Of a DNA stretch of 64,000 nucleotides, positions 15,240 to 52,190 are shown piece by piece (position 1 is the first letter of the stretch; each line of letters begins with the position of its first letter). Under the pieces are notes generated by a model that was not told where the DNA came from, made no database searches, and saw nothing but the letters and a program-made list of their open reading frames with translations. Both the position numbers and the translations under genes were made by a program. The DNA comes from Cliona cf. orientalis (lineage: Eukaryota > Porifera > Demospongiae > Clionaida > Clionaidae). Where the stretch lies: assembly GCA_963930775.1 (NCBI GenBank), contig OZ005689.1, positions 16,522,760 through 16,586,759 on the forward strand, read 5' to 3'.

Positions 15240-16967
15240 ATGGAAAGTGAATATTACTGCCTTCTATTAGAGCTGTCCCAGAGACTCTCCAGAGACGACC
15301 TGCACAACTTGGTGTTCTCCTGTGAAAGCATTGTGCCACCTTCAAGTGCAGAGAAGATCACTGCAGGCATACATCTCTTTCGAGAATTGAAAAATCGTGG
15401 GTATCTAGGACCAGCTAACTATGACTACCTAGGAAAGCAGCTAGTACTGGTGGGCAGGCATGATCTTGCCTCCATGCTGCCAGATCAGTTTGACGTTCTC
15501 TTTGGAAGATCAATGATTCGAGATAAGGGATATTTTGGCTGCTTCATTAGTCCCACTGTTCCTTGTTCAACTTTTGAGAATGTTGCATTGCTAAAGTCTT
15601 TCCATCCTAATACAGAATCGAGAATGTTACTGATGCATCTATCACAGCAATTGACCTCCGAAGATGCCAAGAAGCTATCCTTTCTGATGTATCCTTCTCA
15701 TGACTCAGTCACTCCACTTGATTTTGTGGAGAGCTTAGAGAAAGAAGGAGGTTTGAATTCTAGTGAGTTAGTAACCCGACTTTCATCATGCCTAGAGATT
15801 GTAGGGAGGGTTGATTTAGCTCAATTGTTCCGATCTTTGAAAGTACCTCAAGTTGTTGCTTCAATGTCCACTTCACAGCAGCAGCTCACTCTTAAGATGA
15901 GGCTGTTTTTGCACTCAAAACAACAGTCCTATGACTTCCATGTGAAAGCATTGAAGAAGGTTGAAACTGACGATGTAGTAAGGATGAAATTGCTTGGTCC
16001 AATTATTGAGCGTCTTTGCCCGTCGTTTATGGAATCCAATATTCAACAGTTGGCAAGAAGTCTTGAAGCAGCAACACTGGTGAGCCACCAACAAAATCTA
16101 GATTCACTAATAAAAACGTCCCTTGTAGAAGTTTCAAAAATCGACAAAGCTTTCGTAAAGGCCATACGACTAACATGTATTGCCAACATTGAAGATATTC
16201 CTATAGACGTCATTTGCGATATAATCGAACAGCTTCATGAATCATATAGGTCTTTCAATTCCATAATGGATATCTTAAACTGGAATTCGTCTATGAGAGG
16301 TGAGTTAAAGGAGACAATAGAGCAACGTAAATCACCCTTTGGGACATCTGCTGAGGCTGCTGCTCAGTATCTCTTTGACTTAACTAAGGAGATCAGTCGA
16401 GGTGATAAACTCTGTCAAGAAAAAGAGAAGCTCGACCATTACCTGCAAGCAATACGTGGTGTTTACTACAGTGCTTGCTATTACATTATAATAATTCAAT
16501 GGCTTGCCTCTCTTTATTGCTTCATTAATTCTACTACTCCTCATGTTTATGAATATAAAGAAACACTAGAACACATTATTCAGCGTAAAAATGATGATAT
16601 CATTCAGTCATACAAATTTATATCTGAGGTGATTGGACACGATATTCTACAAAATCTTAACATACCTTTGCCAGAGAGTGCCTGTAAGGATATGAATGTC
16701 CCAAAGCCGTCTTCATGTGCTCATCCACTTATAACTTATTTCGATGTGCTTCTGATAAAGATTCTAGCTGTGGCTACACTTGGCCCAGGACATACAGCTC
16801 TTGCTAGTCCTTGCTCAGTGGACATAGGTGAAGCTACCAGTTGTGGCTCAGAGTTGATAATGGTGAGTGCATCAGCCATGAATATGCAACTGGAGGCATT
16901 TCGAAAGAGAGTGCTATCAAGTGATCCTTTGACTAGTCAAGTAATTGCTGCATTAACTGATAGCTAG
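15240..16967 (+). CDS. Tandem death-effector-domain protein 1 (intronless)
   Basis: 575 residues from the Met at 15240, chosen because paralogues start at the same point (MESEYYCLLLELSQ against MTSEYHSTLTELSQ). DED1 spans residues about 4-80 with the RxDL motif as GRHDLASML. DED2 spans about 125-200 with GRVDLAQLF. DEDs form helical bundles that assemble FADD/caspase-8-like platforms. After residue 210 comes a region of about 365 residues that I do not recognise. It has conserved blocks LKMRLFLHSKQQSYDF, DILNWNSSMRGE and SPFGTSAEAAAQYL, a hydrophobic stretch (YYSACYYIIIIQWLASLYCF), a second one (YFDVLLIKILAVATLG) and VSASAMNMQLEAFRKR. No caspase, kinase or NACHT domain is present. One exon, no intron. 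A scaffold or regulator in cell death or immunity is inference. Confidence 0.85.
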   Translation: MESEYYCLLLELSQRLSRDDLHNLVFSCESIVPPSSAEKITAGIHLFRELKNRGYLGPANYDYLGKQLVLVGRHDLASMLPDQFDVLFGRSMIRDKGYFGCFISPTVPCSTFENVALLKSFHPNTESRMLLMHLSQQLTSEDAKKLSFLMYPSHDSVTPLDFVESLEKEGGLNSSELVTRLSSCLEIVGRVDLAQLFRSLKVPQVVASMSTSQQQLTLKMRLFLHSKQQSYDFHVKALKKVETDDVVRMKLLGPIIERLCPSFMESNIQQLARSLEAATLVSHQQNLDSLIKTSLVEVSKIDKAFVKAIRLTCIANIEDIPIDVICDIIEQLHESYRSFNSIMDILNWNSSMRGELKETIEQRKSPFGTSAEAAAQYLFDLTKEISRGDKLCQEKEKLDHYLQAIRGVYYSACYYIIIIQWLASLYCFINSTTPHVYEYKETLEHIIQRKNDDIIQSYKFISEVIGHDILQNLNIPLPESACKDMNVPKPSSCAHPLITYFDVLLIKILAVATLGPGHTALASPCSVDIGEATSCGSELIMVSASAMNMQLEAFRKRVLSSDPLTSQVIAALTDS

Positions 16968-17319
16968 TTAGCCATAGCTACATAATATAATGTATATTAA
17001 TGACTTACTAAGGCAGCTACAAAAACGTTAATGTCATCATGCATTCTATGACGTATTATGGTAGCATCTAGACTTAATGACTATTGATTTTTTCTTTTTT
17101 GTACACTATTATAGTAGCTATAATATATATGTCGTGAAGTGCAGTAGCTATGTATCCATGCAAAAATGAATGATATTATGACATCATTCAGTATTGTTAT
17201 TGTAGCCTATACACAGAAGCCAGAAGTGGTAAACCATTGCAATTATTATTGCATCACTCAAGTCAACAACACTACTGCATGGTGAGCTATCCATCAATAA
17301 AGTTTAATCAAATTCAGCT
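16968..17319. other. 3' flank of DED gene 1
   Basis: AT-rich with an AATAAA-type polyadenylation word at about 17295. No gene is seen. Confidence 0.35.
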
Positions 17320-17905
17320 GTAGAAATTGACAAAGCTTCACGAAGGGCATGTGAGTAACATGTGTTGCTAACCGTCGCTTGAAGATATTCCAATAAACAA
17401 GGTTTGTCATGAAACATACCCGTCATTCAATTCTATAATGGAAGGGTGGAGAACAGGTAGCAAAAGAGTGGGGGGGGGGGGGGGGGGCTCAGACCTTTGA
17501 CTATGTACTGTGACAACAATTTGGCTGTGGGCACATGCCCACAGCAAACCTAGGGGGTCTGGGGGCATGCTCCCCCAGAATTTTTTGAAAATTTTGACTC
17601 TCTGAGAGTGTTTCTGATGCAATCTGGCAGCAGTTTTTGGACTGATTTAGTAGCAATTCTTACTCGAGCACTTTTGCAAACACCTAAATGTAGAATTATT
17701 ATGACAGAACTATATATTATTATCGCTATAATTTTGCAGTATGAGCATGTGATAAAATGGGGGTTCAGCCCCCCCCCCCCCCCCCCCCCCCGTTTAATTT
17801 CCAGAGTGGGGCAGCCCCCCTCCCATTTCTGCGCCCCTGTAATGGATATCTTAAATTGGAATTTATCAACCTATCAGAGTTGAAGTAAAGGAGATAATAG
17901 AGTAG
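17320..17905 (+). pseudogene. Fragment of a fifth tandem-DED gene, split by a transposon
   Basis: Bases 17320-17442 and 17840-17905 align with positions about 16135-16330 of DED gene 1 (for example GAAGATATTCC, CATTCAATTCTATAATGGA and TAATGGATATCTTAAATTGG). The frame carries stops and indels. The two pieces are contiguous in the intact genes; here they are separated by the 397-bp element at 17443-17839. Confidence 0.75.
17443..17839. mobile_element. Small hAT-like element with long G and C runs
   Basis: Inserted into the DED pseudogene with the 7-bp duplication TAATGGA at 17436-17442 and 17840-17846 (8 bp if one mismatch is allowed, the hAT length). The right end reads GCGCCCCTG, and the left end (GGGTGGAGAACAGG) is a degenerate inverted partner. 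A G-run of about 18 near the left end faces a C-run of about 20 near the right end, so the two could pair. Related sequence lies inverted at 12055-12190 and in part at 27425-27480. Confidence 0.7.
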
Positions 17906-19392: not shown

Positions 19393-19467
19393 TAATATAT
19401 ACACTGTGTCTACCGTATCGGCACCGGTACCCAAGATTTAGTGCTTGGAGTACCGGCAACTATATTA

Positions 19468-19516
19468 TATAGCTATAGATCCCAGCCCCCGAAGGGGGCT
19501 GGGATCTATAGCTATA
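19468..19516. repeat. Perfect hairpin, 23-bp arms, GAA loop
   Basis: The arms are perfect complements around GAA (…CCCAGCCCCC GAA GGGGGCTGGG…). Stable enough to hamper sequencing; it lies in the left part of the MULE-like element. Confidence 0.85.
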
Positions 19517-19529
19517 CTAATAGCCACTA

Positions 19530-20812: not shown

Positions 20813-20916
20813 ACTTTCGAAAATTTTCTAAGTTTTTTGGCGGGCTATTATGCCGGTACTCGAAGCGCTAAATTATCAGTACCGGTGCCGGTACGGTAGA
20901 CACAGCCTAATATATA

Positions 20917-21203: not shown

Positions 21204-24200
21204 ATGGCTACTTTGAGAGGTCACTTTCGAGGTCTTGCAAACGACAGGAACCTGCGACGATTCGTAGTGCAGGCGAGACCCACTGGTAGACAGCTGGGTA
21301 CTGGGTCCTACGGAACAGTGGAGGAGGTAATAAATGAAGGTTAATATTATCTGTGCTATTAGCAGCTAAGATGGCGATGCCCTTTTTCAGGTTGAGGTGA
21401 ATGGGCTAGTGTGTGCTGGAAAGAAGATCCACGAGATTCTATTGGACGTTGGAAATATTGGAGTGAGAGATATTACTGCCAAGTATGTGCAGGAGTGCCA
21501 GCTGATGTCTGATCTTCGTCACCCGAACATCACCCAGTTCCTGGGTCTGTGTTTCCTTCCCAACCGTCAACTCCCAGTGTTGGTTATGGAGAGACTAGAT
21601 AGTAGCCTGGACGATCTACTTGAGAGTGTCCCCAGTATCCCTCTACCCCTAAAGCGCTCCATGCTCGAGGACATAGCCAGGGGCCTGCTCTATCTACACA
21701 ACCATGACCCTCAGATCATCCACAGGGACCTGACGGCAAAGAATGTGCTTTTGACTCCCTCTCTTGTTGCCAAAATCACCGACTTTGGGAATTCTCGTAT
21801 TGTGAATATCCAGCCGGGTCAACTAGCTCAGACATTGTCTCAAAATCCAGGGACACTAGTGTACATGCCTCCTGAAGCACTCACTGATACAGCTCGATAC
21901 GGCCCCAGCCTGGACATCTTTTCATTTGGGCATCTTGGAATTTTTATTGGATTACAGGTTATTTTAATACTTAACTTATGGATTAATAAACACCATCTAT
22001 GATTTATCTACCTATGAAATAATTAATAATATCAAATCTTACTGATTTCTTTGGGAATGACTAAAATTTGTCAATATTCAACTAGAATCTCTAGTTGAAT
22101 ATTCATAGTTATTCCCCAAAGAATTGAAGCTTACAATCACAATAATAAATCGAAAATATATTATGATTGGATTTTTTACACAGATTTTTCCTGGAAAGCT
22201 TTTGGAGCCCACATATCCTGATCCTGATAATCAAGAAAACCTCTTGGCACGTTCTGAGGTTGAGCGACGTCAAACATACATTGATCAGTTGGATCGAAAA
22301 TTACCAGAGTATGGACACCACCCTATTGCACAGCTGGTGAAAGAGTGCATGAAAAACGCAGCTGCACAAAGACCCACAACTGAAGATGTGCTAAAATCTC
22401 TGGAAGAAATGAAGCCAGCTATCGATGGTCCTTGTGGAGAAGTAGCCAGAGCTGATGCTGTGAGACAGGTGGTGATGATGAGAGCTATACTTGGAAGAGA
22501 GACAGAGGTGAGGAGAAAGACTGATGAGTTAGCAGCTAAGGATGAGGAGATTCACCACCTGCAACAGGAGCTGGAACAGGAACAAGTAGGACAATATATA
22601 ATCAGCGTGAATGATTCATTGAAGTACATGATTATGTATATAATAATATATTATTTGCCACTCATTCAGGCTGAGCGAGCTAGGATTGAGGAACAACTTC
22701 AACATACTAATGCAGAGCTTCATCAACAAACTGCCAATTTACAACATGAAAAGGACCTGGTTTGTGTAATTATGAGTACTAATAAGCTTTAATTATCATT
22801 GAATAGGCTGTGAGCGAGGAGGAACTTCGTGCACAACTTCAGCAGACAACCACTGAACTACAGCAGAAAGATATCCAAATACAACAGAATGAGGAAGAAC
22901 TTAGACAAACAACACTTGAGCTCCAGCAAAAAGGTGCTGAATTGAGCAGCGTCCAACATATCCTGCAGGTAATAATTATGCACATTCAAGCACACTAGTC
23001 TTGTGTTGTAGCTAGTCAATAAACTGTGCACAATAATAATATTATTTTAATGCATCAAACATGCAGGACAGAGAGGCTCGGTTGAGGGCACAAGAGGAAG
23101 AGATAAAAGAGAGAGATGCTGAAATCAACAGACTACTGAGAGAGCTAAGGATATGTCATATCCAGCTACTGGGATCGCAGGTACAGAATGACATAAAACG
23201 CTATTAGAGAGTCCCAGATACACATATTCACAATAATAATAATAACTGTTATTTGTCTGTTACCAAGCTAGGTGCCACATACCGTTGAAAACAAAGTGCT
23301 AGGCTTTTAAGGAATTTTCAAAATGGATTTTATTGAAAATGTTTTGTTTAAACTTCTGGCGACATTTGCCAATAATTATTGCCTTTTTCACTTTTTGACT
23401 AGTTAAGCTTCAAAATAGTTCATCTGATTCAGTAGATAACTAGAGCTCTATAGAGCACATACCCCTGCGCACTGCAGCGTCGATGTCAGAGCATATCTGT
23501 AGTCAGAGTGCTCGGCCGTTGACGACCTTTACCTACACATAGTGCCAGGTTTTGCACATGAGCAGAGAGCACATAGTGGGCGGTGTCCATAGGCGTGGCC
23601 AAAAAAATGCTCTATTTGCAATGCTCGTGGGCCTCATCAAACAATTCAAAGCATACTGAAGCCAGTTTTTCGGCGATATTGACGGATACGTTGTATTTAC
23701 GAGTCGCTCAGAAGCTTAGATCTCCAGATCTGGCAATTTTTGTGCTAACGACAGACAAACCAATTACATTACCCCTTATGCATGTGCGCAGGATAAAAAT
23801 AATAATAATGTGCTTCATTAGCTATTATCATGTATATGTGTAGGAGGACATTTCACAATGGACAGCTTTAAAACAGGTAAACTTAGTCTTGGTATCAAAC
23901 GGTTGCACAATACAGACACTGAAAATTCTTGCAGTCACCATCAAAAGCTACTCTAAAATTGAAGTGGAGGCGAGGAAAGGATATGCCAAATGGTATGTCA
24001 ACCACCATACAAGCTATAGTGATTGGTGATAATGTCTATGTTGGTGGAGGATCCACTCTATCTGTTGATTCTCGGAAATGTTTTGTTGTGATGGTGTACT
24101 CTCTTGCTAGTGGATCATGGAACAAGCTACCACCTCATAAGACGCAGTGGTTTGGCATGGTTGCAGTGAATAACCAACTTGTTCTAGTTGGTGGTAACAC

Positions 24201-28879: not shown

Positions 28880-30643
28880 ATGGCTACTGACTACTACTCT
28901 CTTCTTACGGATATATCGCAAAGGCTCTCAAGTGATGATATTGGCAACTTAGTGTTCTCTTGTGGATACGTTATTCCCAAATCTGTTGCTAAAACCATAA
29001 CTACAGGTATTCATCTCTTTCAAGAATTGAAACAAAGAGGTCATCTTGGGCCAGAAAATTATGAGTTCCTAAGAAAGCAATTACTACTGGTTGGTAGGCA
29101 TGATCTGGCAGCCATGTTGCCAGATCAGACCGACGTTCTCTTTGGACAAACGAGTGTTCGAGACAAGGGATATTTTGGCTGCTGTGTTAGCCCTGTTTTA
29201 CCAGATGAATTCTGCTTAGTAAATCCCTCAGTATTGCAGTTTTCCAATCCAAAAAATGAATCCAGAGTGTTGCTCTTGCATTTATGTGAGCAATTGGATG
29301 CTGACGATGTAGAAAAAGTAGCTTTCTTGATGTTTCCTTCTCAGTATGACAGTTGCCATACGGCAATGGAGTTGGCAAAACTAATAGAGGAACGAGGAGG
29401 TTTGAAATCAATTGACACAATTACTCATCTGTCATCATCTCTAGAGGCTGCGGGGAGAGCGGATTTAGGTAACCTTCTCAATTCACTAAAAGCATCTCAA
29501 ACCGTTTTATCTTTGAATTCATTGTCAACTTCACATCAGCAGCTCAACTTGAAGATGAGCCTGTTTATAAACTCAAAACTCCGATCATATGATTTCCATA
29601 TGAGAGCCCTTACTGAAGTGGAAACTGATGATAAGGTGAGGGCAAGACTATTGAGTCCCTTAGCCAAGAAAGCCCAAAAATTCTTTGATCCCCAAACGAT
29701 TTCCTGTTTTGCTGAAAGCATCAAAGCAGCTTTGCAGAATAGGCATGATAGTGATGATTATGACTCACTGATCAGAACCTCCCTTCTGGAGGCAACAAAT
29801 GCTAACCAATCATATGTCAGGCGATTAGGAGCATTAGATGAAAGTAAAGCACCTTGCTTAGACAAGCTCTGTAGCTTACGAAAAGATGGTTATGATTCTT
29901 ATAAATCATTCAATTGGGTTATGGACATGCTAGACTGGAATTCATCAATAAGACGAGAATTTGAGGAGGACATTAAGCTACGTAAGTCACCCTTTGGAAC
30001 ACCAGCAGAGCATGCTTGTCAGTACATTGTTGAATTGTGTAAGGAAATCAGTCAATTTGGTGATGATTTCTTTCAGGAAACTGATCAACATCTTCTTGCA
30101 CTCAATAGCGATTACTTCTGTTGCTGCTATCATGTCATTACTTTACAGTGGCTTGCAAGTCTTCTTTGCGTGTCTAATTCTTCAGATGGCACACTGCTTG
30201 ACTTGAGCAAATACAGAGATGTACTTTGCCATATTGTTGAGCAAAAAAGGGATGAAATAGTCAAACAGTACAGTCAAATAGCTGATATAGTTGGGCTGGG
30301 TACATTACAACAGCTAGTCAAGCAGATGCACAGTTCTGAAATCGGTAAAACTGATGCTCAGCTGTCACTAAATCCATTCCTGCTTCTCTTCAACGTATTA
30401 ACAATTAAATTGCTTGCTATTGCTACTTTGGGATCAGATGGTTCAACCACGCAAGATCTTGAACTAAGTTTCATGCAAATGGGCCAAACATTCTGCAGTG
30501 AAGTTGTCGGTGTAGCTTCAAACATGATTAGAGTGAGTGCAGCAGCTATGAAGAAGGAAGTGGAAGCTTTCCGAAAGAAAGTACTAGCTGAAGATCAACT
30601 GTGTAGCCGAGTTATTGCAGCGTTAACAATTGATTCAAGCTAG
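28880..30643 (+). CDS. Tandem death-effector-domain protein 2 (intronless)
   Basis: 587 residues in one exon, and the most diverged of the four copies. DED1 is at about 4-80 (GRHDLAAML) and DED2 at about 128-205 (GRADLGNLL). The C-terminal region keeps the family blocks LKMSLFINSKLRSYDF, MDMLDWNSSIRREF and SPFGTPAEHACQYI, the hydrophobic stretch YFCCCYHVITLQWLASLLCV, the second one FLLLFNVLTIKLLAIATLG, and VSAAAMKKEVEAFRKK. It is longer than its sisters because of small insertions (an Asp-rich loop near residue 290 and an extra segment near residue 505). The two RxDL motifs and the hydrophobic segments are kept although silent and replacement changes are many, which argues for selection. Function is as inferred for DED gene 1. 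Confidence 0.85.
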   Translation: MATDYYSLLTDISQRLSSDDIGNLVFSCGYVIPKSVAKTITTGIHLFQELKQRGHLGPENYEFLRKQLLLVGRHDLAAMLPDQTDVLFGQTSVRDKGYFGCCVSPVLPDEFCLVNPSVLQFSNPKNESRVLLLHLCEQLDADDVEKVAFLMFPSQYDSCHTAMELAKLIEERGGLKSIDTITHLSSSLEAAGRADLGNLLNSLKASQTVLSLNSLSTSHQQLNLKMSLFINSKLRSYDFHMRALTEVETDDKVRARLLSPLAKKAQKFFDPQTISCFAESIKAALQNRHDSDDYDSLIRTSLLEATNANQSYVRRLGALDESKAPCLDKLCSLRKDGYDSYKSFNWVMDMLDWNSSIRREFEEDIKLRKSPFGTPAEHACQYIVELCKEISQFGDDFFQETDQHLLALNSDYFCCCYHVITLQWLASLLCVSNSSDGTLLDLSKYRDVLCHIVEQKRDEIVKQYSQIADIVGLGTLQQLVKQMHSSEIGKTDAQLSLNPFLLLFNVLTIKLLAIATLGSDGSTTQDLELSFMQMGQTFCSEVVGVASNMIRVSAAAMKKEVEAFRKKVLAEDQLCSRVIAALTIDSS

Positions 30644-31359: not shown

Positions 31360-31712
31360 GTGCAGATGCTCTCGCCATTCTTAAGAGATAGAAAAAGGAA
31401 GCTGAATGAAATGAGAGGTGGAATAAGGAATGGGAAGAGACGAAAAGGAAAATATAGAGGAGAGAGTCAAAAAACAAGAAGGGAACAAGAAAGGATAAAT
31501 CTCTACAACACTATTTTGAAATCAATTGAAGACATACCAAAACAGCCTTCAAAAGCAAAAATTCCCATTACACCAAGGCCCATAACATCCAAGAAAGCTA
31601 ATTTAAAAGCCACTACACAATCATGAGCCGATGAACGCATTGATTCCAATGTGTTCTGTGCCTGCTTTGGGAGCTATGAGGATGACATTCTGGATGGATC
31701 TGGTGCTGTTTG
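31360..31712 (+). pseudogene. C-terminal remnant of a DNA-transposon transposase
   Basis: An open stretch (31360-31623) encodes a very basic Lys/Arg-rich segment (DRKRKLNEMRGGIRNGKRRK). After a stop the frame resumes as ERIDSNVFCACFGSYEDDI and then LDGSGAV. A basic tail followed by a Cys-containing CxCFGxYEDD motif resembles the C-terminal zinc-finger end of Tigger/Jerky-type transposases. The catalytic domain is absent. A shorter diverged copy lies in the right duplicate at about 48130-48330, so the remnant predates the duplication. Confidence 0.45.
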
Positions 31713-33430
31713 ACATGCTTACTTCATAGTAATGTGTTGCGTATAATATAGCCTTAGAGTGTGTACTTGCTGTAGGCAATATTCTTGCGGTATGAGTATA
31801 TAGTTAGTCTGTTACTGTGTGAGCACCGCGTGTGTATGTATGGTTACAGTCTATGATGTTATGTGTTACTTAAATAACTCTTTTGACCTCATAGTGCATG
31901 TATTGCATACCAGTATAGTGCAGTATGCTTGGGAGGAAGCCACTACTGTAACCTTCCAGGAAGGGAACAAAAAAACCAAGATAAACATCATAATGGGAAT
32001 TAAGCATACAAACGAGAGGTTGATAACTGGTTGTTAGCTGCTGACTTGTTTATTGAGCAACACCGCTCATATAAGGAAAAGAATTCTGACTTTTGCTAGG
32101 TTCTATCAGTACTGTAAAAAGAATAAACAGTCATTTCAACCTAATAATTGGTTATCTCATTTCAACATAACAAAGTTCATTGGAGACTCACTGGTTACTG
32201 TTTATTTTCTCTCAGTAAGCAGAGCGATTCAATACATGTAGAGGAGAGTAAATTATTCATAATGGCTGGTTAAACCTTTAAGGTACTCATTTTTTTATGT
32301 TATAGTCTATGATTATTTCTGACTTCTCTGCATGATTAACTAATGCTCCAGAAAATGCAAATTAAGTTGTTTACAATTAGGAATTTGGAACATTCAGACA
32401 ATGAGATTTTCCCATGCTACATTAAAATTAATGGTTCATGATCTAGAAAGGAGGCATGAAACCGAGATAACCACATAATTATGGTCAAAATAACGATTAA
32501 TTTCTTACAGTGAGCTAGCTAGCTGCTAGTATCATGAGGTGAACTGTGACTCTCGATGGTTGAATTTCTGTCCTGCAGCTGTGATCCAACCTCCAAAGCA
32601 GGGTAAACCAGTGTACAAATCTAGTTGATAATTTGCTGTTTACAATAATACATTGATACTAAAGTAGTGTCAAGATCTAGTGCAGCTTAAAGTGTAATCA
32701 CAAACTATATTATGCTACAGGTGCCAAACCCTCAGTGCTGTGAGATTTTTGTCATAATAATTATTGCAATAGTAGTGACATAATTATACCCCAACCCCAC
32801 CCCTACTGGTTCTGAAATATTTGCAGGAAGTATGGCTAGTACTAGTGTTGTGAATTTGTAAGCAAAGCCAGTACGTAGCACAGTTGCTGTTAGCAGTGTT
32901 ATAGAAAACCTCAAGAATGCACTATAATACTGATTTTATGGTATTACACGGTAGTACCACATGCATGCCAGATCAGCAGATCTAGTACAATGTAAAGCCA
33001 GGAAGCGTAGTTAACATTGATAGCCTACTGCAATGATGTACATGTACACACTAATTTTCTCGAAATGAAGTGATCGCTGTCTCTTTCATCTATTAAGAGC
33101 TTGTCAAGAAGCGGAGAAGGAGGAAGTGGTCAGCAATATTAATGTTGCTAAAACTTGTGCTTTCATCAAAATCCACACAATACATATTATGTTGAAAATA
33201 TCATAAAAGCCTAACAGCACCTTATTACATTGTTTTCAACATAAATGTAATAACCTAAAACTAGGTACGCGGCAGACACACAGAGAATGACTGCAGTACC
33301 CCTCACGCATGTGTAGAGGCTTAATAGTGGAGCTGCACCTTATTTCCAACTATAATATAATCACTGACTTAACTAGCAAGCACCTTCTGGAATGCTAGTT
33401 AATGCAAAAGAGTCAGATATATAAAAATTA
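31713..33430 (+). other. Duplicated 5' region of DED gene 3
   Basis: Noncoding. From about 32160 onward it is highly similar to 48380-49670. No exon with splice borders is convincing. The strong similarity reflects recent duplication and need not mean function. Confidence 0.55.
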
Positions 33431-33469
33431 TGGTGGCCGAGAAGGACACTGTCCGTGGTACACATTTAT

Positions 33470-33622
33470 CCCGATGCGTGAACCCCTCCTGACATTCGTT
33501 TTCCCGACGCGTTAACTTGCCCCGACGTACGTTTCCCGACGCGTGAACCTTTCCCGATATTTGTTTACCTGACACGTGAACCCCTCTCCCGACATGCGAC
33601 TTCCGACGCGCGAAACTGTTTC
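33470..33622. repeat. CpG-rich 33-bp tandem repeat, about 4.5 units
   Basis: Units read like CCCGACGCGTGAACC followed by a CCCGACATTCGTTT-like half, each about 33 bp. The CpG density is far above that of the surroundings. On the minus strand the frame stays open through all units and gives an 11-residue periodic peptide, a result of the length being a multiple of three. Confidence 0.75.
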
Positions 33623-34131
33623 GATATGTAGCTTGTTGCATGTGTAAAGTACTGTGTGTAGTCATAGTATTCCACTCTGTGTTTGTACATTAATTTTGTA
33701 GGGATATTAGCTAATGTGTACTAGTTCTTGAAGTGCATGAACTTTACTGGGAAACTCATCTCATGTAGATACGCATGACATAATATACTACATAAGCTTG
33801 CACACAAAGATTGTGTAGCGTACTCCAATTCCTGGTAGTATACTATATGCATAACAAAAGCAGTGCATGCATGCTGTAATAATGAATTCTATAAAAATCG
33901 GATGTAGATATAGCCAGTACAACCATTCCTCTAAGTTGATAAACTGCTCACAATTATCTTGAGCAGTACCCATTAATTTTTCAGCTCCAGCATCCTAAAA
34001 AGCATAAATATTGGCATTAGAAAATCACCATGGCTTGCTTTGGTCTCTTGACTATAATAATATTATGTAAATCAAGCAGCTAGTAGTGTTGTAGAGAGTA
34101 ACCACAAGAATGCACTAATACTGATTGCATG

Positions 34132-34334
34132 GTATTTCTTCTAAAAATTCGGCATGAAAAATAATAATATTGCTTTAGCTTCGCCAAATTTTTAGAGGTT
34201 AATATTCAACATTCTGTCTGCGTGCGCATTCCATTCCCGTTTATAGCATTATACACATGACGACCTTTGCCAAAAATTAGAGACTAAAGGGTGCCGAATA
34301 ATTAGAAGGGCTGAATTTTTAGAAGAAATACGGT
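34132..34334. mobile_element. Small MITE inside the foldback
   Basis: Ends TATTTCTTCTAAAAATTC and GAATTTTTAGAAGAAATA are inverted. About 200 bp, noncoding. A related internal word (CAAATTTTTAGAGGTTAATA) lies between. Confidence 0.6.
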
Positions 34335-35267
34335 ATTACATATTAATATTATTATGTAGCTAGCTATCCGCCAAACATTATAGTTGGACACTCACAGTGT
34401 AATAATATGTTATAGTTATAGCACGGGGCCAGGGATTTATGGCAGTAAACCGATCCGAGTCCGAGGGCGTACCACGTGCATGCCAGATCAGTACAAAAAT
34501 TATGTAGCTAGGTAGTATACATATTATGATGCAGAGACAAATCAATATCTTGAGAATAGTAAGACAAGAAATATACACATGGTTCATTAACTACTTAAAT
34601 CTTTGTATCCTATTACATTAATTTCATATACATAGAACAAAGAAGCAATTTTAATTAGTGTTAATACTTTGAAGATATCAAATCACATCTTTTTATTACT
34701 GACTCATAAACATAATAATATTATGGTGTGCAACAATCAAACTGCTTCATTTACTTTACCATGAACTCAAATTCTATGACCCCCGGTAGGGTAGGAGGTC
34801 TGTGTCTATCACTTGATCATAATCTGTATCATCTGATGCTGCCTGACCACGAGGCTTGGACAACTCCACTACAGAGTAGCTGGTGGGGTGGGCCTGAGGA
34901 GCGGCAGTGTGTTGTAGTAATCAGGGCAGTCCAACTCATCCAGTAGTTTATCAACATGATGCATGCACTGCTTTTGTTATGCATACAGTATACTACCAGA
35001 AATTGGAGTACGCTACACATGATTGTGTGCAAGCTTATGTGGTGTACTTTGTCATGCGTATCTACATGACATGAGTTTCCCAGTAAAGTTCATGTACTTC
35101 ACATTACACATTAGCTGATATTCCTTCAAAATTAATGCACAAACACAGAGTAGATTACTACAATTACGCTACAGTACTTTACTCTATACATACAACAAGC
35201 TACATATCGAAACAACGGATCAATGTGTACCACGGAGAGTGTCCTTCTTGGCCACCATAAAAAATTA

Positions 35268-35729
35268 ATAATAGTAACTGTACTTGAAAAATGCATGCCT
35301 TAAACCAGTGCTTTGTACCTGTAAATTTAAACGTTATAAACAAAGCTTTGAAGATTGATGATTTGATACATATAAATGAACCAATAATGAGGTTGAAATG
35401 ACAAGTGTAGGATTCCCAGAATTAATTTGTCCCACATTGAACTTTTTGCTGAATCTGATAGTGATATAACAATGCTATTTTGTGTAGCTTGATTGTCAAG
35501 ACAAAAAGCACATGACTGACATACAAGATCATCATGCATACCCGTACATGTAATTTTGCAACAGGAAATTCCTACAATGCTTTCCAGGAATACATTATGC
35601 CATGGCTGCATGTCATTGCATCGAAAAAAAACTATTTGGCAGCTCAGATACAAATGCAGATAGCTGAACTAAGCTGAAATTATTGACTTGAATTCTCCTA
35701 GCTGGAGCTTAGCCTGAACATTTGTCATC
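35268..35729 (+). other. Proximal 5' flank of DED gene 3
   Basis: Shared with the right copy (about 49680-50151) with small indels. The likely promoter lies here; no TATA box is evident close to the start. Confidence 0.45.
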
Positions 35730-37454
35730 ATGACAAGTGAATACCACTCTACTCTAACAGAGTTATCACAGAAACTCTCCGAGGATGACCTCAACAATTT
35801 GGTTTACTCTTGTGAAAGTGTTTTACCACTATCAACTGCTGAAAAAATCACTGCGGGTATTCATCTCTTTCGAGAATTGAAGCATCGGGGATATCTTGGA
35901 CCAACTAACTATGACTACCTAAGAAAGCAGCTAGTACTGGTGGGCAGGCATGATCTTGCCTCCATGCTGCCAGATCAGTTTGAGGTTCTCTTTGGACGAT
36001 CGAATGTTCGAGATACGGAGTACTTCGGTTGCTTTGTCAGCCCTACTTCTCCAGATACATCATCTATTGTGATTAATGCCTCACTGCTTGACCATAGTCA
36101 GCCTAGCTCAGAATCGAGAATACTGCTTATGCAGCTATCTCAGCAGCTAAGCTCTGAGGATACAAAAAAACTCATGTACCTGATGTATCCCACTCAAAGC
36201 AAAACCACTGCACTAGACTTTGCAGAGCTACTGGAGAGAGAAGGAGGACTACATTCATGTAGCATAATCAATCGACTCTCATCATGTCTGAATGCTGTAG
36301 GGAGGGCTGACTTAGCCCAGCAACTTACCCACCTGAAAATGCCTCACTTACCTGTGCCCTCAAGTTCACTGTCCACGTTACAACTGCAGCTGAATTTGAA
36401 GATGAGGCTACTGTTGCACTCAAAACAACAATCGTTTGATTTCTATATGAGAGCATTAAATGAAGTAGAGCACAGTGTTGATGTTAGAATGAAGTTGCTT
36501 GGTCCGGTATATGCTCGCATACAAATATCATTCAGCAGCTCAAATATTACTCAACTCGTCAAAAGCCTTCAAAAGAATCCTATAGCAATCGACAGTGGAG
36601 TTGACTTGGATTCAGTTGTCAACAACTCCATCTTGGAAGGGCTAAAACTTGACCAAGCATATTCCATGCGAAATACATTATTGGGCAGCAAAGATATTCC
36701 ATTAACAAAGCTGAGGGAGGTGACTAAGCAAGTTCATGATTCATATATCATATTCGATTCCTTAATGGACATCATAAATTGGAACGCAAGTGTCAGAGGT
36801 GAGATAAAAAGTGACATAAAGCAACGTATATCACCTTTTGGAACACCAGCTGAGTTCGCTTGCAAATACATCCTCGAATTATCTCAAGAGATAGGTTGTG
36901 GCAGAAGTCAAGAAGCGCATGCCATAATAGATAGTCACATACAGGCACTCAACAGTAACTATTACTGTTGTTGTTACCATGTCATAGTCTTACAGTGGCT
37001 AGCCAGTCTTCATTACTTCTTTACCTCATTTGGCTTTGGTCAACTTGACATATGCAAATTCAAAGAAACACTCCAGCATATTCTCCAGCAGAAGAAAGAT
37101 GAGATAGCACGGACATACGGATACATATCAGACATAGTTGGGCACGCTGTGCTTCAGAAACTCATTCCTTTATCAGAGGTTAAAGTCCATGAGAATCACT
37201 TGCCACCAAATCCATTCGTGCTTTTTTTTAATATACTAGTGATCAAACTTTTAGCTACTGCTACGCTAGGAGTAGATCAGCCTCTCAGTCAGTACTTCCT
37301 GATCAATATCAATGAGGCTATGCATAGTAGTTCACAAGTAATAATGATCAGTGCATCAGCTATGAAGAAACAAGTTAAGGCATTTCGGGAAAAGGTACTA
37401 TTGAATGATTTCTTATGTAGGCATGTAACTGCAGCTCTAACTGAGTGTGATTAA
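35730..37454 (+). CDS. Tandem death-effector-domain protein 3 (intronless)
   Basis: 574 residues, one exon. DED1 is at about 4-80 with R73/D75/L76 in GRHDLASML. DED2 is at about 128-202 with R192/D194/L195 in GRADLAQQL. The C-terminal region has LKMRLLLHSKQQSFDF (about 222-237), MDIINWNASVRGE (about 347), SPFGTPAEFACKYI, the hydrophobic stretch NYYCCCYHVIVLQWLASLHYFF (about 411-432) and PFVLFFNILVIKLLATATLG (about 495-514). It ends in VKAFREKVLLND. It is the left member of the segmental duplication; DED gene 4 differs at about 32 residues by my count. In this copy RDTEYFG replaces the RDKGYFG found in the other three. The hydrophobic segments could be membrane helices or buried core; no signal peptide is present. 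Confidence 0.87.
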   Translation: MTSEYHSTLTELSQKLSEDDLNNLVYSCESVLPLSTAEKITAGIHLFRELKHRGYLGPTNYDYLRKQLVLVGRHDLASMLPDQFEVLFGRSNVRDTEYFGCFVSPTSPDTSSIVINASLLDHSQPSSESRILLMQLSQQLSSEDTKKLMYLMYPTQSKTTALDFAELLEREGGLHSCSIINRLSSCLNAVGRADLAQQLTHLKMPHLPVPSSSLSTLQLQLNLKMRLLLHSKQQSFDFYMRALNEVEHSVDVRMKLLGPVYARIQISFSSSNITQLVKSLQKNPIAIDSGVDLDSVVNNSILEGLKLDQAYSMRNTLLGSKDIPLTKLREVTKQVHDSYIIFDSLMDIINWNASVRGEIKSDIKQRISPFGTPAEFACKYILELSQEIGCGRSQEAHAIIDSHIQALNSNYYCCCYHVIVLQWLASLHYFFTSFGFGQLDICKFKETLQHILQQKKDEIARTYGYISDIVGHAVLQKLIPLSEVKVHENHLPPNPFVLFFNILVIKLLATATLGVDQPLSQYFLININEAMHSSSQVIMISASAMKKQVKAFREKVLLNDFLCRHVTAALTECD

Positions 37455-37767
37455 TTGTCAAAATGATAACTCATTCAATAACAGTATGATGTGCACAGTG
37501 ACTTGTATAAGTTGTGAGCAATCTAGTTTTGTACCACTAAGTTATGCACTATAATTTCATTACATGATATTATTATTTTCCATTCTTATGATTAAATTTA
37601 ATTAATACCCACAGAGCATTATTGAATAGCTACGACTGTTGACTGCACGATCACTATTGGTTATGCATGCATATGCATGCCAGAATAATAGTCATGCAGC
37701 ATAACGCATATTAATGAATAGTGTGGGAGGATACTAGCTTGGATATTTTAGTACATAATTGGCAGAG

Positions 37768-38632
37768 ATATCATAGAGTCGGTAGACTCTATAAGTAGGG
37801 ATGGCACAGATACTCCATATATTATGTAATACATTACAAATATCCAAATATCTCAAAACTATATAGTAATTTTGTGAGATTTCTAAGTGTCAAAATCAGA
37901 ATCTACAGCAAATTGTGCATCTAGCAAGATCAAGATCATTCATCAAAACTATTGTATACGTCAGAACTAGACGTTAAAAAATAGGTCATCTATCAATCTT
38001 TCTTTCTTCTTTCTTTCTTTCTGTTTTCTTGGCATGCCCATATGGTGTTGCAATGGTGAAGTCATGTGACCTGCTCAAGCGCTCAGCTGATCGATCAGCT
38101 CAGTGAACTAAAGATTATGGTAGCTACTACCAACAGTAAACTTATTGGCCTATAAAATACATTCCTGAAACAGAAGATTTTCGTCACTAGCTACTTGGTT
38201 CTAAACAGCCTTTTTCAAGTTCGCCGGTCAGCCAGCTTCAGGATCGAGATAACGAGGGGCGTGGCTAGTCTTGCAGGTCTGGCTTCATTCGCAGGTCAAT
38301 TTAGACGTGAACTGTCCGAGAATCACACTGATGTATGTTCAATAGTGTGCAATACAAAAGAAGACGTCCTAGCTAGCTATCAAAAGACTGCCTGGGATTT
38401 GCACTTACAGGAGTATTCAAATTTGAAATCACGGTGTGTTGCAGTACCATAGCTCAGGCCTGACCCAAAGGCTAGGATCGCACAAACATGCTGAATCAGT
38501 GATCCAGGTTTACCTACTGTACTTCCCTATAATATTGTATTATTGTTGGAGCACAGTTGGATGTAGCTAGATATAGAAAAAAGAAGTTGTAGCTAGTTCT
38601 ATGCATTGAATAGGCAAACCATAATATCGGTA
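37768..38632 (+). repeat. Interspersed repeat family A, copy 2
   Basis: Starts with the hairpin tip ATAGAGTCGGTAGACTCTAT and runs to GCAAACCATAATATC. The right duplicate lacks it, so it was inserted after the duplication or was lost there. Contains TTTCTTTC simple sequence and CGAGGGGCGTGGCT, both shared with copies 1 and 3. Confidence 0.75.
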
Positions 38633-40750: not shown

Positions 40751-40898
40751 TCACCATATAGAGTGTAGAATTTTAATGCCCGGCCTCTGTCCCCATAAAT
40801 TAGTCAGCTAAGTGGCATTGATGAAATTAATGACAATCATGAGCTACACCGAGGGCTCTAAAAAAAGAATAGTAACAAGTATAAAAAACAATTGAATA

Positions 40899-41537: not shown

Positions 41538-41538
41538 T

Positions 41539-46896: not shown

Positions 46897-46913
46897 ATGA
46901 AAAACTTTGAGAC

Positions 46914-47311: not shown

Positions 47312-48129
47312 ATTATTACCACACCCTTTTTTCCATAAGACAATCATGCATTGTACAATAATTATCATGTTATTTTATGTACATGTATTAACACTCCTCA
47401 GAGTTGCTCAACTGGCTACTATCCATACAGTGGATTCAAATGAACTTGCGCAATCTGTCGGGTACAATACATATTATGCACTCATTGTTTCTTGTGGTCA
47501 GTTTTAGCAATGATGGTCAAACTGGTGTACGTCATATACAATCATGTATCAAAATTAATTGAGTTGCTGAGTTTGTGCATAGCTGTACAGATGTATTATA
47601 ATCTTAAGGTTACAACATGCAAGCTAGAACATCTCTGAAGTTTGCAAGATTAATATGCAGCCACTACTCTTGATATCAATGGCATTTAAGGTACGAACAC
47701 AACATCCATTGCATTCTGTCCTACAAATCACCAAAATTAATAATTTGTTTTCTAGCTACATTTGTAGCTACTACCAGTGGTCGAGCCATGTGAAGTTTGC
47801 GAATTATTATCATGAAAATTGTTGTTGCACTTGTTTGATTCTCCAAGCATTAAGACTAAACTCGGCTCATCTGTGGTTCCCTGCTGCTCAGTTTCAAGTA
47901 AGGACTGGTGCCTCTTGATCCAGGTATTATAATAATAATTATTCGTCACTAATTTAATCCTATGACACCATATGTCTCCATGTCTGTAGGTATGACTTCA
48001 TGTAGCGGCTGATGCATGCTGTTCAACGATGGCGACTGTTGGAGGTGTATGCATGGAGTGGCAGGATTAAAAAAAAGAACAGTGACTCAATAACATTGAT
48101 ATATCATAAATCAACAATACCTTTTTGAA
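47312..48129. other. Junction region between the two duplicated blocks
   Basis: Noncoding, unique in the window as far as I can see. The duplication similarity starts near 48120-48130. The breakpoint of the tandem duplication should lie between about 45000 and 48130, now overlaid by transposons. Confidence 0.5.
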
Positions 48130-51100
48130 ATCAATTTAAGATATACCAAGACATCCTTCAAAACAAGAATTCCCAACACTCTAAGGCCACAACCTCCAAG
48201 AAATCTAAAGCCACTACACAATCATGAGCCGATGAACATATTGATTCTATATAATGTGTTCTGTGCCTGCATGCTTTGGGAGCTATGAGGATGACATTCT
48301 AGATGCATGGATCTGGTGCTGTTTGACCGCATGTGCCCCCCTATGTTTGACATAATATCTTAATATTTCATTTCGACATAACAAAGTTCATTGGAGACTC
48401 ACTGGTTATTGTTTATTATTCTTCAGTAAGCAGAGCGATTCAATACATGCAGAGGAGGGTAAATTATTCATAGTGACCAGTTAAACCTAAGGTACTCATT
48501 TTTGTATTATTACTTATAGTGTATGATTGTATCTGACTTCTCTGCATAATTATTAACTAATGTTCCAGAAAATGCAATAATTAAGTTGTTTACAATTAGG
48601 AATTTGGAATATTCAGACAATAAGATTTCCCCATGCTACATTAAAATTATGGTTCATGATCTAGAAAGGAGGCATGAAACCGAGATAACCACATAATTAC
48701 GGTCAAAATAATGATGAATTTCTTATAGTGAGCTAGCTAGCTAGCTGGCTGCTAGTATCATGAGGTGAACTGTGACTCTCAATGGTTGAATTTCTGTCCT
48801 GTGATCCAACCTCCAAAGCAGGGTAAACCAGTGCATGTACAAAACTGGTCGATAATTGGCTGTTTATGATAATGTTATTATTCTTTAATACATTGATACC
48901 GGTACTAAAGTAGTGTCAAGATCTAGTGCAGCTTAAAGTGTAATCACAAACTATATGCTACAGGTGCCAAACCCTCAGTGCTGTGAGATTTTTGTCATAA
49001 TAATTTTTTAGTAGTAGTGACATGATACCCCAACCCCACCTCTACTGGTTCTGCAGAAAGTATGGCTAGTGTTGTGAATTTACAAGCAAAGCCAGTAGCA
49101 CAGTTGCTGTTAGCAGTGTTGTAGAAAGCCTCAAGAATGCACTACAATACCGATTGTATGGTATTACACGGTAGTACCACATGCATGCCAGATCAGTAGA
49201 TCTAGTACGATATGTAAAGCCAAGAAGCGTAGTTAACATTGATAGCCTACTGAAATGATAAGTCAGTCTAGTAGCAAAAGCTATCGCTAAACCTACATGT
49301 ACACACTAAATTTCTTGAAATGAAGTGATCGCTATCTCTTTCATCTATTAAGAGCTTATCAAGAAGCGGAGAGGGAGGAAAGTGGAATTAATTTTGCTAA
49401 AATTTGTGCTTTCATCAAAATCCACACAATGCATACGTTGAAAATACCATAAAAGCCTAATAGCACCTTGTTACCTTGTTTTCAACATACTTAAAACTAG
49501 GTATACGTGGCAGACACACACAGAATTACTCTACAGAAGCTACCCCTCACACATGTGTAGAGGCTTAATAGTGGAACTGCACCTTTTATCCAACTGTATA
49601 ATCACTGACTTGACTAGCATGCACGCGCACCTTCTGGAATGCTAGTTAATGCAAAAGAGTCAGATATATAAAATAATAGGTAACTGTACCTGAAAAATGC
49701 GTGCCTTAAACCAATGCTTTATACCTGTTACGATAATTTAATGGGCTAAAACATTATGAATTGAAGCTTTGAAGCTTTGTTACATAGGTTAAAATGACCA
49801 GCGTAGGATTCCCAGAATTAATTTGTCCCACACTGAACTTTTTGCTGAATCTGATAGTGATAATTATAACAATGCTATTTCGTGTAGCTTGATTGTCGAG
49901 ATTAAAAGCACATGACTGACATACAAATCATCATGCGTATACCCGTGCATGTACTGATTATAAATGCATTACTATCAAAATTATCTGGGGTATTTTTGCA
50001 ACAGGAAATTCCAACAATTATTAATGCTTTCCAGGAATGCATTATGCCATGGCTGTATGTCATTGCAGCTCAGATATAAATTTAGATAGATGAACCAAGC
50101 TAAAAGTATCAACTTGAATTCTCCTGGAGCTTAGCCTGAACATTTGCTATCATGACAAGTGAATACCACTCTACTCTAACAGAGTTATCCATGAGGCTCT
50201 CCAAGGATGACCTCAACAATTTGGTTTACTCTTGTGAAAATGTTTTACCACTATCAACTGCTGAAAAAATCACTGCGGGTATTCATCTCTTTCGAGAATT
50301 GAATCATCGGGGATATCTTGGACCAACTAACTATGACTACCTAAGAAAGCAGCTAGTACTAGTGGGCAGGCATGATCTTGCCTCCATGCTGCCAGATCAG
50401 TTTGAGGTTCTCTTTGGACGATCGACCGTTCGAGATAAGGGGTACTTCGGTTGCTTTGTCAGCCCTACTTCTCCAGATACATCATCTATTGTGATTAATG
50501 CCTCACTGCTTGACCATAGTCAGCCCAGCTCAGAATCAAGAATACTGCTCATGCAGCTATCTCAGCAGCTAAGCTCTGAGGATACAAAAAACCTCATGTA
50601 CCTGATGTATCCCACTCAACGCAAAACTACTGCACTAGACTTCGCAGAGCTATTGGAGAGAGAAGGAGGGCTACATTCATGTAGTATAATCAATCGACTC
50701 TCATCATGTCTGAATGCTGTAGGGAGGGCTGACTTAGCCCACCAACTTACCCACCTGAAAATGCCTCACCTACCTGTGCCCTCAAGTTCTCTGTCCACAT
50801 TACAACTGCAGCTGAATTTGAAGATGAGGCTACTGTTGCACTCAAAACAACAATCATTTGATTTCTACATGAGAGCATTAAATGCAGTAGAGCACAGTGT
50901 TGATGTTAGAATAAAATTGCTCGGTCCGGTATATGCTCGCGTACAGGCATCATTCAGCAGCTCAAATATTACTCAACTCGTCAAAAGCCTTCAAAAGAAT
51001 CCTATAGCAATCGACAGTGGAGTTGACTTGGATTCACTTGTCAACAACTCCATTTTGGAAGGACTAAAACTTGACCAAGCATATTCCATGCGAAATACGT

Positions 51101-52190
51101 TATTGGGCAGCAAAGATATTCCATTAACAAAGCTGAGGGAGGTGACTAAGCAAGTTCATGATTCATATATCACATTTGATTCCTTAATGGACATCATAAA
51201 TTGGAACTCAAGTGTCAGAAATGAGATAAAAAGTGACATGAAGCAACGTATATCACCTTTTGGAACACCAGCTGAGTTCGCTTGCAAATACATCCTCGAA
51301 TTATCTCAAGAGATAGGTTGTGGCAGAAGTCAAGAAGCGCATGCCATAATAGATAGTCACATACAGGCACTCAACAGTAACTATTACTGTTGTTGTTACC
51401 ATGTCATAGTCTTACAGTGGCTAGCCAGTCTTCATTACTTCTTTACCTCATTTGGCTTTGGTCAACTTGACATATGCAAATTCAAAGAAACACTCCAGCA
51501 TATTCTCCAGCAGAAGAAAGATGAGATAGCACAGACCTATGGATACATATCAGACATAGTTGGGCATGCTGTGCTTCAGAAACTCGTTCCTTTATCAGAG
51601 GTTAAGGTCTATGAGAATCACTTGCCACCAAATCTATTCGTGCTTTTATTCAATGTACTAGTGATCAAACTTTTAGCTACCGCTACGCTAGGAGTAGATC
51701 AGCCTCTCAGCCAGTACTTCCTGATCGACATCAATGAGGCTATGCACTGGGGTTTACAGGCAATAATGATCAGTGCATCAGCTATGAAGAAACAAGTTAA
51801 GGCATTTCGGGAAAAGGTACTATTGAATGATTTCTTATGTAGGCATGCAACTGCAGCTCTAACTGAGTGTGATTAATTGTCAAAATGATAACTTATTCAA
51901 TAACAGTATGATGTGCACAGTGACTTGTGTAAGTTGTGAGCAATCTAGTTTTGTACCACTAAGTTATGCACTATAATTTCATTACATGATATTATTATTT
52001 TCCATTCTTATGATTAAATTTAATTAATACCCACATTATTGAATAACTATGATTGTTGACTGCACGATCACTATTGGTTATGCATGCATATGCATGCCAG
52101 AATAATAGTCATGCAGCATAGCGTATATTAATGAATAGTGTGGGAGGATACTAACTTGGATGTTCTAGTACATAATTGGCAGAGATATAC
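48130..52190 (+). repeat. Segmental duplication, right copy, DED part
   Basis: Partner of 31500-37767. It lacks the foldback element and repeat A, so it is the compact version. At about 49672-49680 it shows the unoccupied insertion point of the foldback. Confidence 0.9.
50152..51876 (+). CDS. Tandem death-effector-domain protein 4 (intronless)
   Basis: 574 residues, one exon, no gap against DED protein 3 and about 32 differences (about 94% identity by hand count). The changes are spread thinly but cluster in two places. One is the start (QKLSEDD to MRLSKDD in DED1 helix 1-2). The other is near the C-terminus (EAMHSSSQV to EAMHWGLQA). The RxDL motifs (GRHDLASML, GRADLAHQL), both hydrophobic segments and the SPFGTPAE block are unchanged. 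All frames stay open after duplication, so both copies are probably expressed or the event is very recent. Confidence 0.87.
   Translation: MTSEYHSTLTELSMRLSKDDLNNLVYSCENVLPLSTAEKITAGIHLFRELNHRGYLGPTNYDYLRKQLVLVGRHDLASMLPDQFEVLFGRSTVRDKGYFGCFVSPTSPDTSSIVINASLLDHSQPSSESRILLMQLSQQLSSEDTKNLMYLMYPTQRKTTALDFAELLEREGGLHSCSIINRLSSCLNAVGRADLAHQLTHLKMPHLPVPSSSLSTLQLQLNLKMRLLLHSKQQSFDFYMRALNAVEHSVDVRIKLLGPVYARVQASFSSSNITQLVKSLQKNPIAIDSGVDLDSLVNNSILEGLKLDQAYSMRNTLLGSKDIPLTKLREVTKQVHDSYITFDSLMDIINWNSSVRNEIKSDMKQRISPFGTPAEFACKYILELSQEIGCGRSQEAHAIIDSHIQALNSNYYCCCYHVIVLQWLASLHYFFTSFGFGQLDICKFKETLQHILQQKKDEIAQTYGYISDIVGHAVLQKLVPLSEVKVYENHLPPNLFVLLFNVLVIKLLATATLGVDQPLSQYFLIDINEAMHWGLQAIMISASAMKKQVKAFREKVLLNDFLCRHATAALTECD

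What the first reader, a model, noticed from the sequence alone, without database searches (positions are those of the whole stretch)
15240..51876. Amplified family of intronless tandem-DED proteins with an unrecognised C-terminal region
Four intact genes and one fragment in about 36 kb encode two N-terminal DEDs (RxDL motif in each) followed by about 370 conserved residues that I cannot place. These include two long hydrophobic stretches and the blocks NWNSS, SPFGT(P/S)AE and VSA(S/A)AM. No caspase or FADD-type partner domain is attached. This is the best candidate for an undescribed system: a tandem-DED scaffold or FLIP-like regulator, possibly membrane-associated.
Basis: partly seen in the sequence, partly recalled or inferred. 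Interest (0 to 1): 0.88.

Follow-up and report, generated by a model that had tools for sequence, protein, structure and literature searches.

The report
Tandem-DED genes with orphan helical tail
Four neighbouring single-exon genes in what appears to be an animal genome make a protein that joins two cell-death signalling modules to a large, probably helical region matching nothing we could search, a plausible but untested new branch of the death-signalling adaptor proteins.

Summary
Four uninterrupted plus-strand ORFs (574-587 codons) encode proteins 46-94% identical to one another, each with two death effector domains (DEDs) and a ~360-residue C-terminal region. A decayed remnant of a fifth copy lies at 17324-17902. 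DED1 passes Pfam's cut-off in 4 of 4; DED2 alone passes in 1 of 4, but its profile finds cFLIP's second DED. All six gene pairs show purifying selection, Ka/Ks 0.23-0.30, in DEDs and C-terminal region alike. C and D arose by segmental duplication.

The C-terminal region gave no acceptable match in Pfam, NCBIfam, PHROGs, PADLOC, the PDB by sequence, or pattern scans of viral and genome contigs. Models are helical but poor (pLDDT 48 and 55), so a new fold is not shown. The hydrophobic stretches score above zero for membrane insertion in 4 of 4 proteins.

Best reading: a lineage-expanded tandem-DED adaptor or regulator whose helical region stands where the caspase would be. Death-fold proteins with varied C-termini are already reported expanded in sponges, so I file it as a new variant of a known kind. 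Function and species are untested.

The parts
15240..16967 (+). Gene A: tandem-DED protein (ORF open from an upstream ATG at 15222; DED starts at the ATG at 15240)
15240..15500 (+). Gene A DED1 (Pfam DED 57.9 bits; RHDL motif)
15612..15866 (+). Gene A DED2 (Pfam DED 37.1 bits; RVDL motif)
15867..16964 (+). Gene A C-terminal orphan region, predicted helical at low confidence
16455..16523 (+). First hydrophobic stretch of gene A (residues 412-434 counted from 15222); estimated insertion energy +0.5 kcal/mol
16728..16784 (+). Second hydrophobic stretch of gene A (residues 503-521 counted from 15222), with invariant Lys; best overlapping segment estimated at +1.33 kcal/mol
17324..17398 (+). Decayed fragment, piece 1, matching gene A 16138-16208
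17840..17902 (+). Decayed fragment, piece 2, matching gene A 16264-16322; between the pieces lies sequence with long G and C runs
28880..30643 (+). Gene B: tandem-DED protein (DED1 28880-29140, DED2 29246-29518, C-terminal region 29519-30640)
35730..37454 (+). Gene C: tandem-DED protein (DED1 35730-35990, DED2 36105-36368, C-terminal region 36369-37451)
50152..51876 (+). Gene D: tandem-DED protein, 94% identical to C (DED1 50152-50412, DED2 50527-50790, C-terminal region 50791-51873)
31495..37771 (.). Segment holding gene C; three blocks of it recur in order around gene D
48106..52188 (.). Segment holding gene D, counterpart of 31495-37771
33428..35260 (.). Element with long inverted terminal repeats upstream of C; absent at the matching place upstream of D

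Best explanation
A tandemly amplified, selectively maintained family of tandem-DED adaptor or regulator proteins. Inferred mechanism: the two N-terminal DEDs join or cap DED filaments built by a FADD/caspase-8-type signalling complex; the helical C-terminal region, standing where caspase-8 has its protease, either clusters the protein or binds a partner, and so sets the threshold or the output of that complex. Shown here: four intact single-exon genes, two DEDs each, a constrained orphan C-terminal region, purifying selection, segmental duplication of C and D. Inferred: filament co-assembly, the caspase-8 pathway as target, the role of the C-terminal region.
For: In a profile search of the PDB, DED1 matches PEA-15, FADD and caspase-8 DEDs, and the DED2 region matches cFLIP residues 81-177, its second DED (E 0.006); the DED2 profile alone finds the same part of cFLIP at E 4.6e-4. 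In the full-length model DED1 superposes on a FADD DED at 1.2 A over 76 columns (9l5w) and on three of four listed PEA-15 chains at 2.0-2.6 A; tandem caspase-8 and cFLIP DEDs are the top fold hits. RxDL is kept in both DEDs of 4 of 4 proteins. DED1 lies in the best conserved windows (48% and 68% of columns identical in A, B and C). Ka/Ks is 0.23-0.30 in all six pairs, 0.18-0.32 for the C-terminal region alone. No enzyme domain was found in the four proteins. A. queenslandica FADD, CASP8 and a receptor have been assayed as a basal DISC (PMC13012725, passages).
Against: Nothing here shows expression, assembly or a partner. The tandem-DED fold matches have E 6.2e-3 or worse and rmsd 10.5 A or more over about 200 columns, so the predicted arrangement of the two DEDs is not that of caspase-8 or cFLIP, or is mispredicted. 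DED2 is below Pfam's curated cut-off in 3 of 4 proteins, and with gene A alone the cFLIP match fell on DED1, weakly (E 0.35). No caspase or FADD gene was recognised beside the array, but I scanned only 10 of the 57 other ORFs of 85 residues or more and short exons would be missed, so the pathway link rests on the DEDs alone. The best single PDB match is PEA-15, whose recalled main role is in ERK signalling. The C-terminal region could be a sensor or an executioner instead.
Confidence: 0.42

Rival explanations
1. Sensor or receptor: the C-terminal region recognises a microbial or damage signal, and the DEDs recruit caspase-8 or FADD directly, as proposed for other invertebrate proteins that join a DED to a sensing part.
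For: In Amphimedon 357 TRADD-N proteins are reported, and the majority of their architectural types have 1-3 N-terminal death-fold domains and a variable C-terminus (PMC8195603, section read); DED-NACHT receptors are described in amphioxus (PMC2575513, passages). So an N-terminal death fold plus another module is a common plan. Tandem amplification fits immune gene turnover. Alignment columns 281-340 in the C-terminal region are the least conserved (12% identical in A, B and C; uncorrected pn/ps 0.67-0.89).
Against: Ka/Ks over the whole C-terminal region is 0.18-0.32, not the fast-evolving pattern of a recognition surface; no LRR, ankyrin, NACHT or other named domain matched above cut-off.
Confidence: 0.22
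2. Executioner: DED clustering triggers the helical C-terminal region to insert into membranes and kill the cell, as MLKL or helical pore-forming proteins do.
For: Predicted helical, with two hydrophobic stretches in 4 of 4 proteins; the lowest estimated insertion energies are near zero (0.15 in D, 0.5 in A, 0.55 in C), which leaves conditional insertion open.
Against: All eight insertion energies are positive; an invariant Lys and an Asp/Asn lie within the second stretch; no match to MLKL or a pore-former by sequence in Pfam or PDB at E up to 10; the fold search on the poor model gave only generic, insignificant matches, best E 0.4, though Vip3Aa protoxin is among them at E 0.91.
Confidence: 0.15
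3. FLIP-like decoy: the protein acts through its tandem DEDs as a dominant inhibitor, and the C-terminal region is a passive stabilising tail.
For: Tandem DEDs without protease; the DED2 profile finds cFLIP; weak fold hits to viral FLIPs, among them MC160L, whose 372 residues also exceed two DEDs.
Against: A passive tail should not be under the same constraint as the DEDs (Ka/Ks C-terminal region 0.18-0.32, DEDs 0.19-0.33). The viral matches are weak (best E 0.035, an unnamed entry; MC160L 0.21).
Confidence: 0.15
4. Dispensable duplicates: copies on the way to decay with no shared function.
For: One copy has already decayed, and the locus is rich in repeats.
Against: Four open frames; whole-gene Ks is 1.38 or more between the old copies with Ka/Ks 0.23-0.30; the young C/D pair has Ka 0.027 and Ks 0.095.
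Confidence: 0.04

Closest known systems
Caspase-8 / cFLIP tandem-DED proteins
   Same: Two consecutive N-terminal DEDs; the DED2 profile finds cFLIP's second DED; tandem-DED structures are the top fold hits.
   Different: No active or dead caspase domain; an unrelated, predicted helical region of about 360 residues stands in its place. A linker of some 35-40 residues separates the DEDs, and the modelled arrangement of the two differs (rmsd 10.5 A or more).
Viral FLIPs (MC160L, gammaherpesvirus v-FLIP)
   Same: Tandem DEDs without protease; weak fold matches, mostly over about 200 columns, the tandem-DED part.
   Different: Long constrained C-terminal region; a gene array amid eukaryotic genes and repeats.
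Sponge death-fold plus TRADD-N expansion proteins (PMC8195603)
   Same: Amplification, with 1-3 N-terminal death-fold domains and another C-terminal part (section read).
   Different: No TRADD-N or other named domain match; C-terminal region predicted helical, whereas TRADD-N is described as an alpha+beta RRM-like fold (passage; models).
PEA-15 and FADD (DED adaptors)
   Same: DED1 has its best PDB sequence matches here and superposes on both.
   Different: One DED, not two; no such C-terminal region.

Membership tests
DED superfamily (Pfam PF01335) | Match above Pfam's curated cut-off | tested here: met
   Whole proteins 78-86 bits against 35.9, 4 of 4; DED1 alone 4 of 4, DED2 alone 1 of 4
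DED superfamily (Pfam PF01335) | Six-helix death-fold bundle, DED1 | tested here: met
   Six helices modelled at block pLDDT 63-81; 1.2 A over 76 columns to a FADD DED
DED superfamily (Pfam PF01335) | Six-helix death-fold bundle, DED2 | tested here: inconclusive
   Five helices modelled, block pLDDT 67-85 except 46 at its start; not superposed on its own
Tandem-DED proteins (caspase-8/cFLIP) | Two consecutive DEDs with RxDL in each | tested here: met
   profile comparison of DED1 with DED2, probability 84.5%, E 6.9e-6
Caspase-8 / cFLIP proper | C-terminal caspase or caspase-like domain | tested here: not met
   No peptidase C14 match in any of the four, at E up to 1 for whole proteins and up to 10 for the C-terminal region
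Caspase-8 / cFLIP proper | Assembly into DED filaments with FADD | not testable with these tools
   Needs protein
TRADD-N expansion proteins | TRADD-N domain after the death-fold unit | tested here: inconclusive
   No Pfam match in the C-terminal region at E up to 10 and predicted helical, but models are poor and I did not check how well Pfam covers the sponge TRADD-N versions
MLKL / helical pore-formers | Recognisable executioner domain or clear membrane-inserting helices | tested here: inconclusive
   No sequence match; insertion energies positive but small for some segments; model too poor to exclude the fold
Sponge-specific family | Present only in sponges | not testable with these tools
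   No collection of animal genomes on hand; the window's genome is not held

The most novel reading that the evidence does not exclude
The C-terminal region is a new, all-helical effector or signalling domain that some early-branching animals put in place of a caspase behind tandem DEDs, so that DED filaments drive a protease-free output such as membrane permeabilisation or higher-order clustering.
Probability: 0.2. Interest if true: 0.75.

Novelty: new variant of a known kind. Interest (0 to 1): 0.5.

Why it matters
DED signalling is understood mainly from vertebrate FADD, caspase-8 and cFLIP (general knowledge). A maintained gene array that keeps tandem DEDs but has an unknown region where the protease would be offers a direct test of whether DED filaments can drive outputs other than caspase activation.

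Tried and rejected
C-terminal region against known families. Pfam at E up to 10 gave only matches below cut-off, none in more than 2 of 4 members (CFAP300 E 0.0048, 16.7 bits against 27, 1 of 4; TMTC_DUF1736 0.014, 2 of 4; NAAA-beta 0.056, 2 of 4; DNA_ligase_IV 0.055, 1 of 4). PADLOC: ZorA 0.002 in 1 of 4, PDC-M72B 0.023 in 2 of 4. PHROGs: phrog_27638 0.0045 in 2 of 4, four weaker families in 1 of 4 each. NCBIfam: none. PDB profile search at E up to 10: only a steroid hydroxylase, three distinct sequences at 0.29. I treat all of these as chance or generic helical similarity; the C/D pair, being 94% identical, counts as little more than one member.

DED profile hits set aside. Pentatricopeptide-repeat chains in the DED2 search (six sequences, whole-sequence E 7.7e-13 to 1.8e-6, ranked above cFLIP): in the three chains printed they are sums over 7-9 designed repeats, each stretch with its own E of 4.8 or worse. 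Viral RNA polymerases (E 0.033 or worse), a transposase (0.19) and a protease (0.6), and CDC4_D on the N-terminal part (E 0.019 or worse, below cut-off) are taken as chance.

Relatives elsewhere. None confirmed in viral contigs (45 and 124 pattern matches) or genome contigs (44 and 322 pattern matches); no match in phages or plasmids with gene C. The two patterns came from DED1 only. These are not animal collections, and the scans need a shared short pattern, so they say little about animal relatives.

Structure. Two predictions with four sequences each (effectively three, as C and D are near-identical) gave mean pLDDT 48.3, pTM 0.30, and 54.9, pTM 0.45. Fold search with the C-terminal model: 0 matches at E up to 0.001, best 0.4. 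I draw no fold from this.

Internal repeat in the C-terminal region: the two halves compared, probability 0.1%, E 0.53, rejected. Further members in the window: profiles of the whole protein, DED1, DED2 and C-terminal region against all ORFs of 20 residues or more found only the four genes at E up to 10; this did not pick up the broken fragment.

Correction: the upstream in-frame stops printed were computed one base out of frame and are not used; (and 13 for A and B) gives the right ones.
Full report
Observation. The window holds four long plus-strand ORFs at 15222-16967, 28880-30643, 35730-37454 and 50152-51876, called A, B, C and D here. In-frame stops lie 39, 6, 4 and 4 codons upstream of that ATG in A, B, C and D (limits of the stop-to-stop ORFs), and all four end within two codons of one another in the alignment, so the coding part is a single exon in each. 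An AATAAA or ATTAAA lies at +329 and +425 after A, at +137 after C and D, and none within 800 bases after B.

The fragment is a remnant: 17324-17398 and 17840-17902 align to A 16138-16208 and 16264-16322 (scores 58 and 67; maxima of 200 single-base shuffles 32 and 27). A translated match extends the first piece to about 17443. Between the pieces lies sequence with long G and C runs that looks like a small inserted element (inference).

Selection. Nei-Gojobori Ka/Ks is 0.23-0.30 for the six pairs; for the DEDs alone 0.19-0.33 and for the C-terminal region alone 0.18-0.32. Ks between the old copies is 1.38 or more for the whole gene and so near saturation; C/D has Ka 0.027 and Ks 0.095. Uncorrected pn/ps in 60-column windows runs from 0.22 to 0.89 (14 windows, three pairs). 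The least constrained window is alignment columns 281-340; in the C-terminal region the best conserved window is columns 361-420, which hold SPFGT(P/S)AE. C and D are 95.9% identical in the coding part, 96.8% downstream, 89.9% just upstream and 93.6% in the further upstream block, so identity alone does not single out the coding part; the codon pattern does.

Origin of the array. A DNA self-comparison shows 31495-31714 matching 48106-48327, 32153-33426 matching 48364-49673, and 35267-37771 matching 49672-52188, so C and D arose by segmental duplication. In the C copy the last two blocks are separated by an element at 33428-35260 with long inverted terminal repeats, which D lacks. For A and B only coding sequence matched the other copies at E 1e-10. 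Whether the ancestral gene lost its introns by retroposition cannot be told.

The DEDs. Pfam DED is found in two stretches of each protein. DED1 alone scores 57.9-62.7 bits and DED2 alone 37.1, 24.2, 31.8 and 30.6 bits against a cut-off of 35.9. DED2 is also supported by its profile finding the second DED of cFLIP at E 4.6e-4 and by a DED1-DED2 profile comparison at E 6.9e-6, probability 84.5%. AlphaFold with the four sequences models DED1 with six helices (block pLDDT 63-81) and DED2 with five (67-85, but 46 at its start). Foldseek ranks tandem caspase-8 and cFLIP DEDs first, but none at E up to 0.001 (best 6.2e-3) and at rmsd 10.5 A or more over about 200 columns, so the relative placement of the two DEDs is not reproduced; DED1 by itself superposes on a FADD DED at 1.2 A over 76 columns.

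The C-terminal region. No acceptable match was found by sequence or by contig scans with its own patterns. The elements predicted are all helices but the models are poor: pLDDT 48.3 full length, 54.9 alone, the latter with pTM 0.45. The fold search gave no significant match (best E 0.4, mostly long-helix and membrane proteins). So 'unrecognised' holds and 'new fold' is open. The two hydrophobic stretches are real, with mean Kyte-Doolittle values of 1.35-2.32, but the estimated insertion energies are positive in all eight cases (0.15-2.04 kcal/mol; scale and formula typed from recall, an approximation of the published one). The second stretch carries an invariant Lys and an Asp or Asn. Buried helices of a bundle are the simpler reading; conditional insertion is not excluded.

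Literature. PMC8195603 (one section read; passages) reports 357 TRADD-N proteins in the sponge Amphimedon, the majority of whose architectural types have 1-3 death-fold domains, TRADD-N and a varied C-terminus. PMC4704026 (one section read; passages) reports many DED proteins in two haplosclerid sponges. PMC13012725 (passages) tested A. queenslandica FADD, CASP8 and a receptor as a basal death-signalling complex. PMC12909245 (passages) lists 7 for DED in its table for Dysidea avara. PMC2575513 (passages) describes DED-NACHT proteins in amphioxus. My ten literature searches listed no paper that I recognised, from titles and abstract openings, as describing tandem DEDs fused to this C-terminal region; two listings were cut (25 of 225, 20 of 36), only open-licence papers are held, and protein databases of sponges could not be searched, so absence from print is not shown.

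Interpretation. The most economical reading is a lineage-expanded tandem-DED adaptor or regulator with a helical region in place of a protease. It resembles caspase-8/cFLIP in the N-terminal architecture but is not a member of that family, because the caspase domain is absent. Constraint across the C-terminal region argues against a passive tail and against a hypervariable recognition surface.

Source organism. I did not verify that this is a sponge.

Noticed in passing
33428-35260: Element with long inverted terminal arms (35-79 nt blocks, 86-94% complementary), upstream of gene C and missing upstream of gene D; looks like a foldback-type transposon.
   Followed up: partly
21370-22789: Protein kinase domain (Pfam 6.4e-27) followed by an open frame with long charged, heptad-like helices (by eye), and Kelch repeats at 23923-24864; possibly one multi-exon kinase-coiled-coil-Kelch gene.
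   Followed up: partly
57395-58714: Uninterrupted 439-aa reverse-transcriptase-like ORF of a LINE-type element (identified by eye, not scanned).
   Followed up: no
1106-2297: Probable exons of an exostosin-type glycosyltransferase gene (GT47 and GT64 Pfam matches).
   Followed up: partly
8863-9600: 246-codon open frame (ATG at 8887) with a signal-peptide-like start and no Pfam match at E up to 0.001; by eye it recalls TENA-type proteins.
   Followed up: no
12978-13916: Minus-strand open frame of 313 codons with a methyltransferase-like glycine-rich motif (by eye) and no Pfam match at E up to 0.001.
   Followed up: no
17470-17830: Stretch of about 360 bases with long G and C runs within the decayed DED fragment, probably an inserted element.
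   Followed up: no
37769-42190 and 2196-3693: Dispersed repeats shared between the region downstream of gene C and the 2.2-3.7 kb region, 80-96% identical.
   Followed up: no
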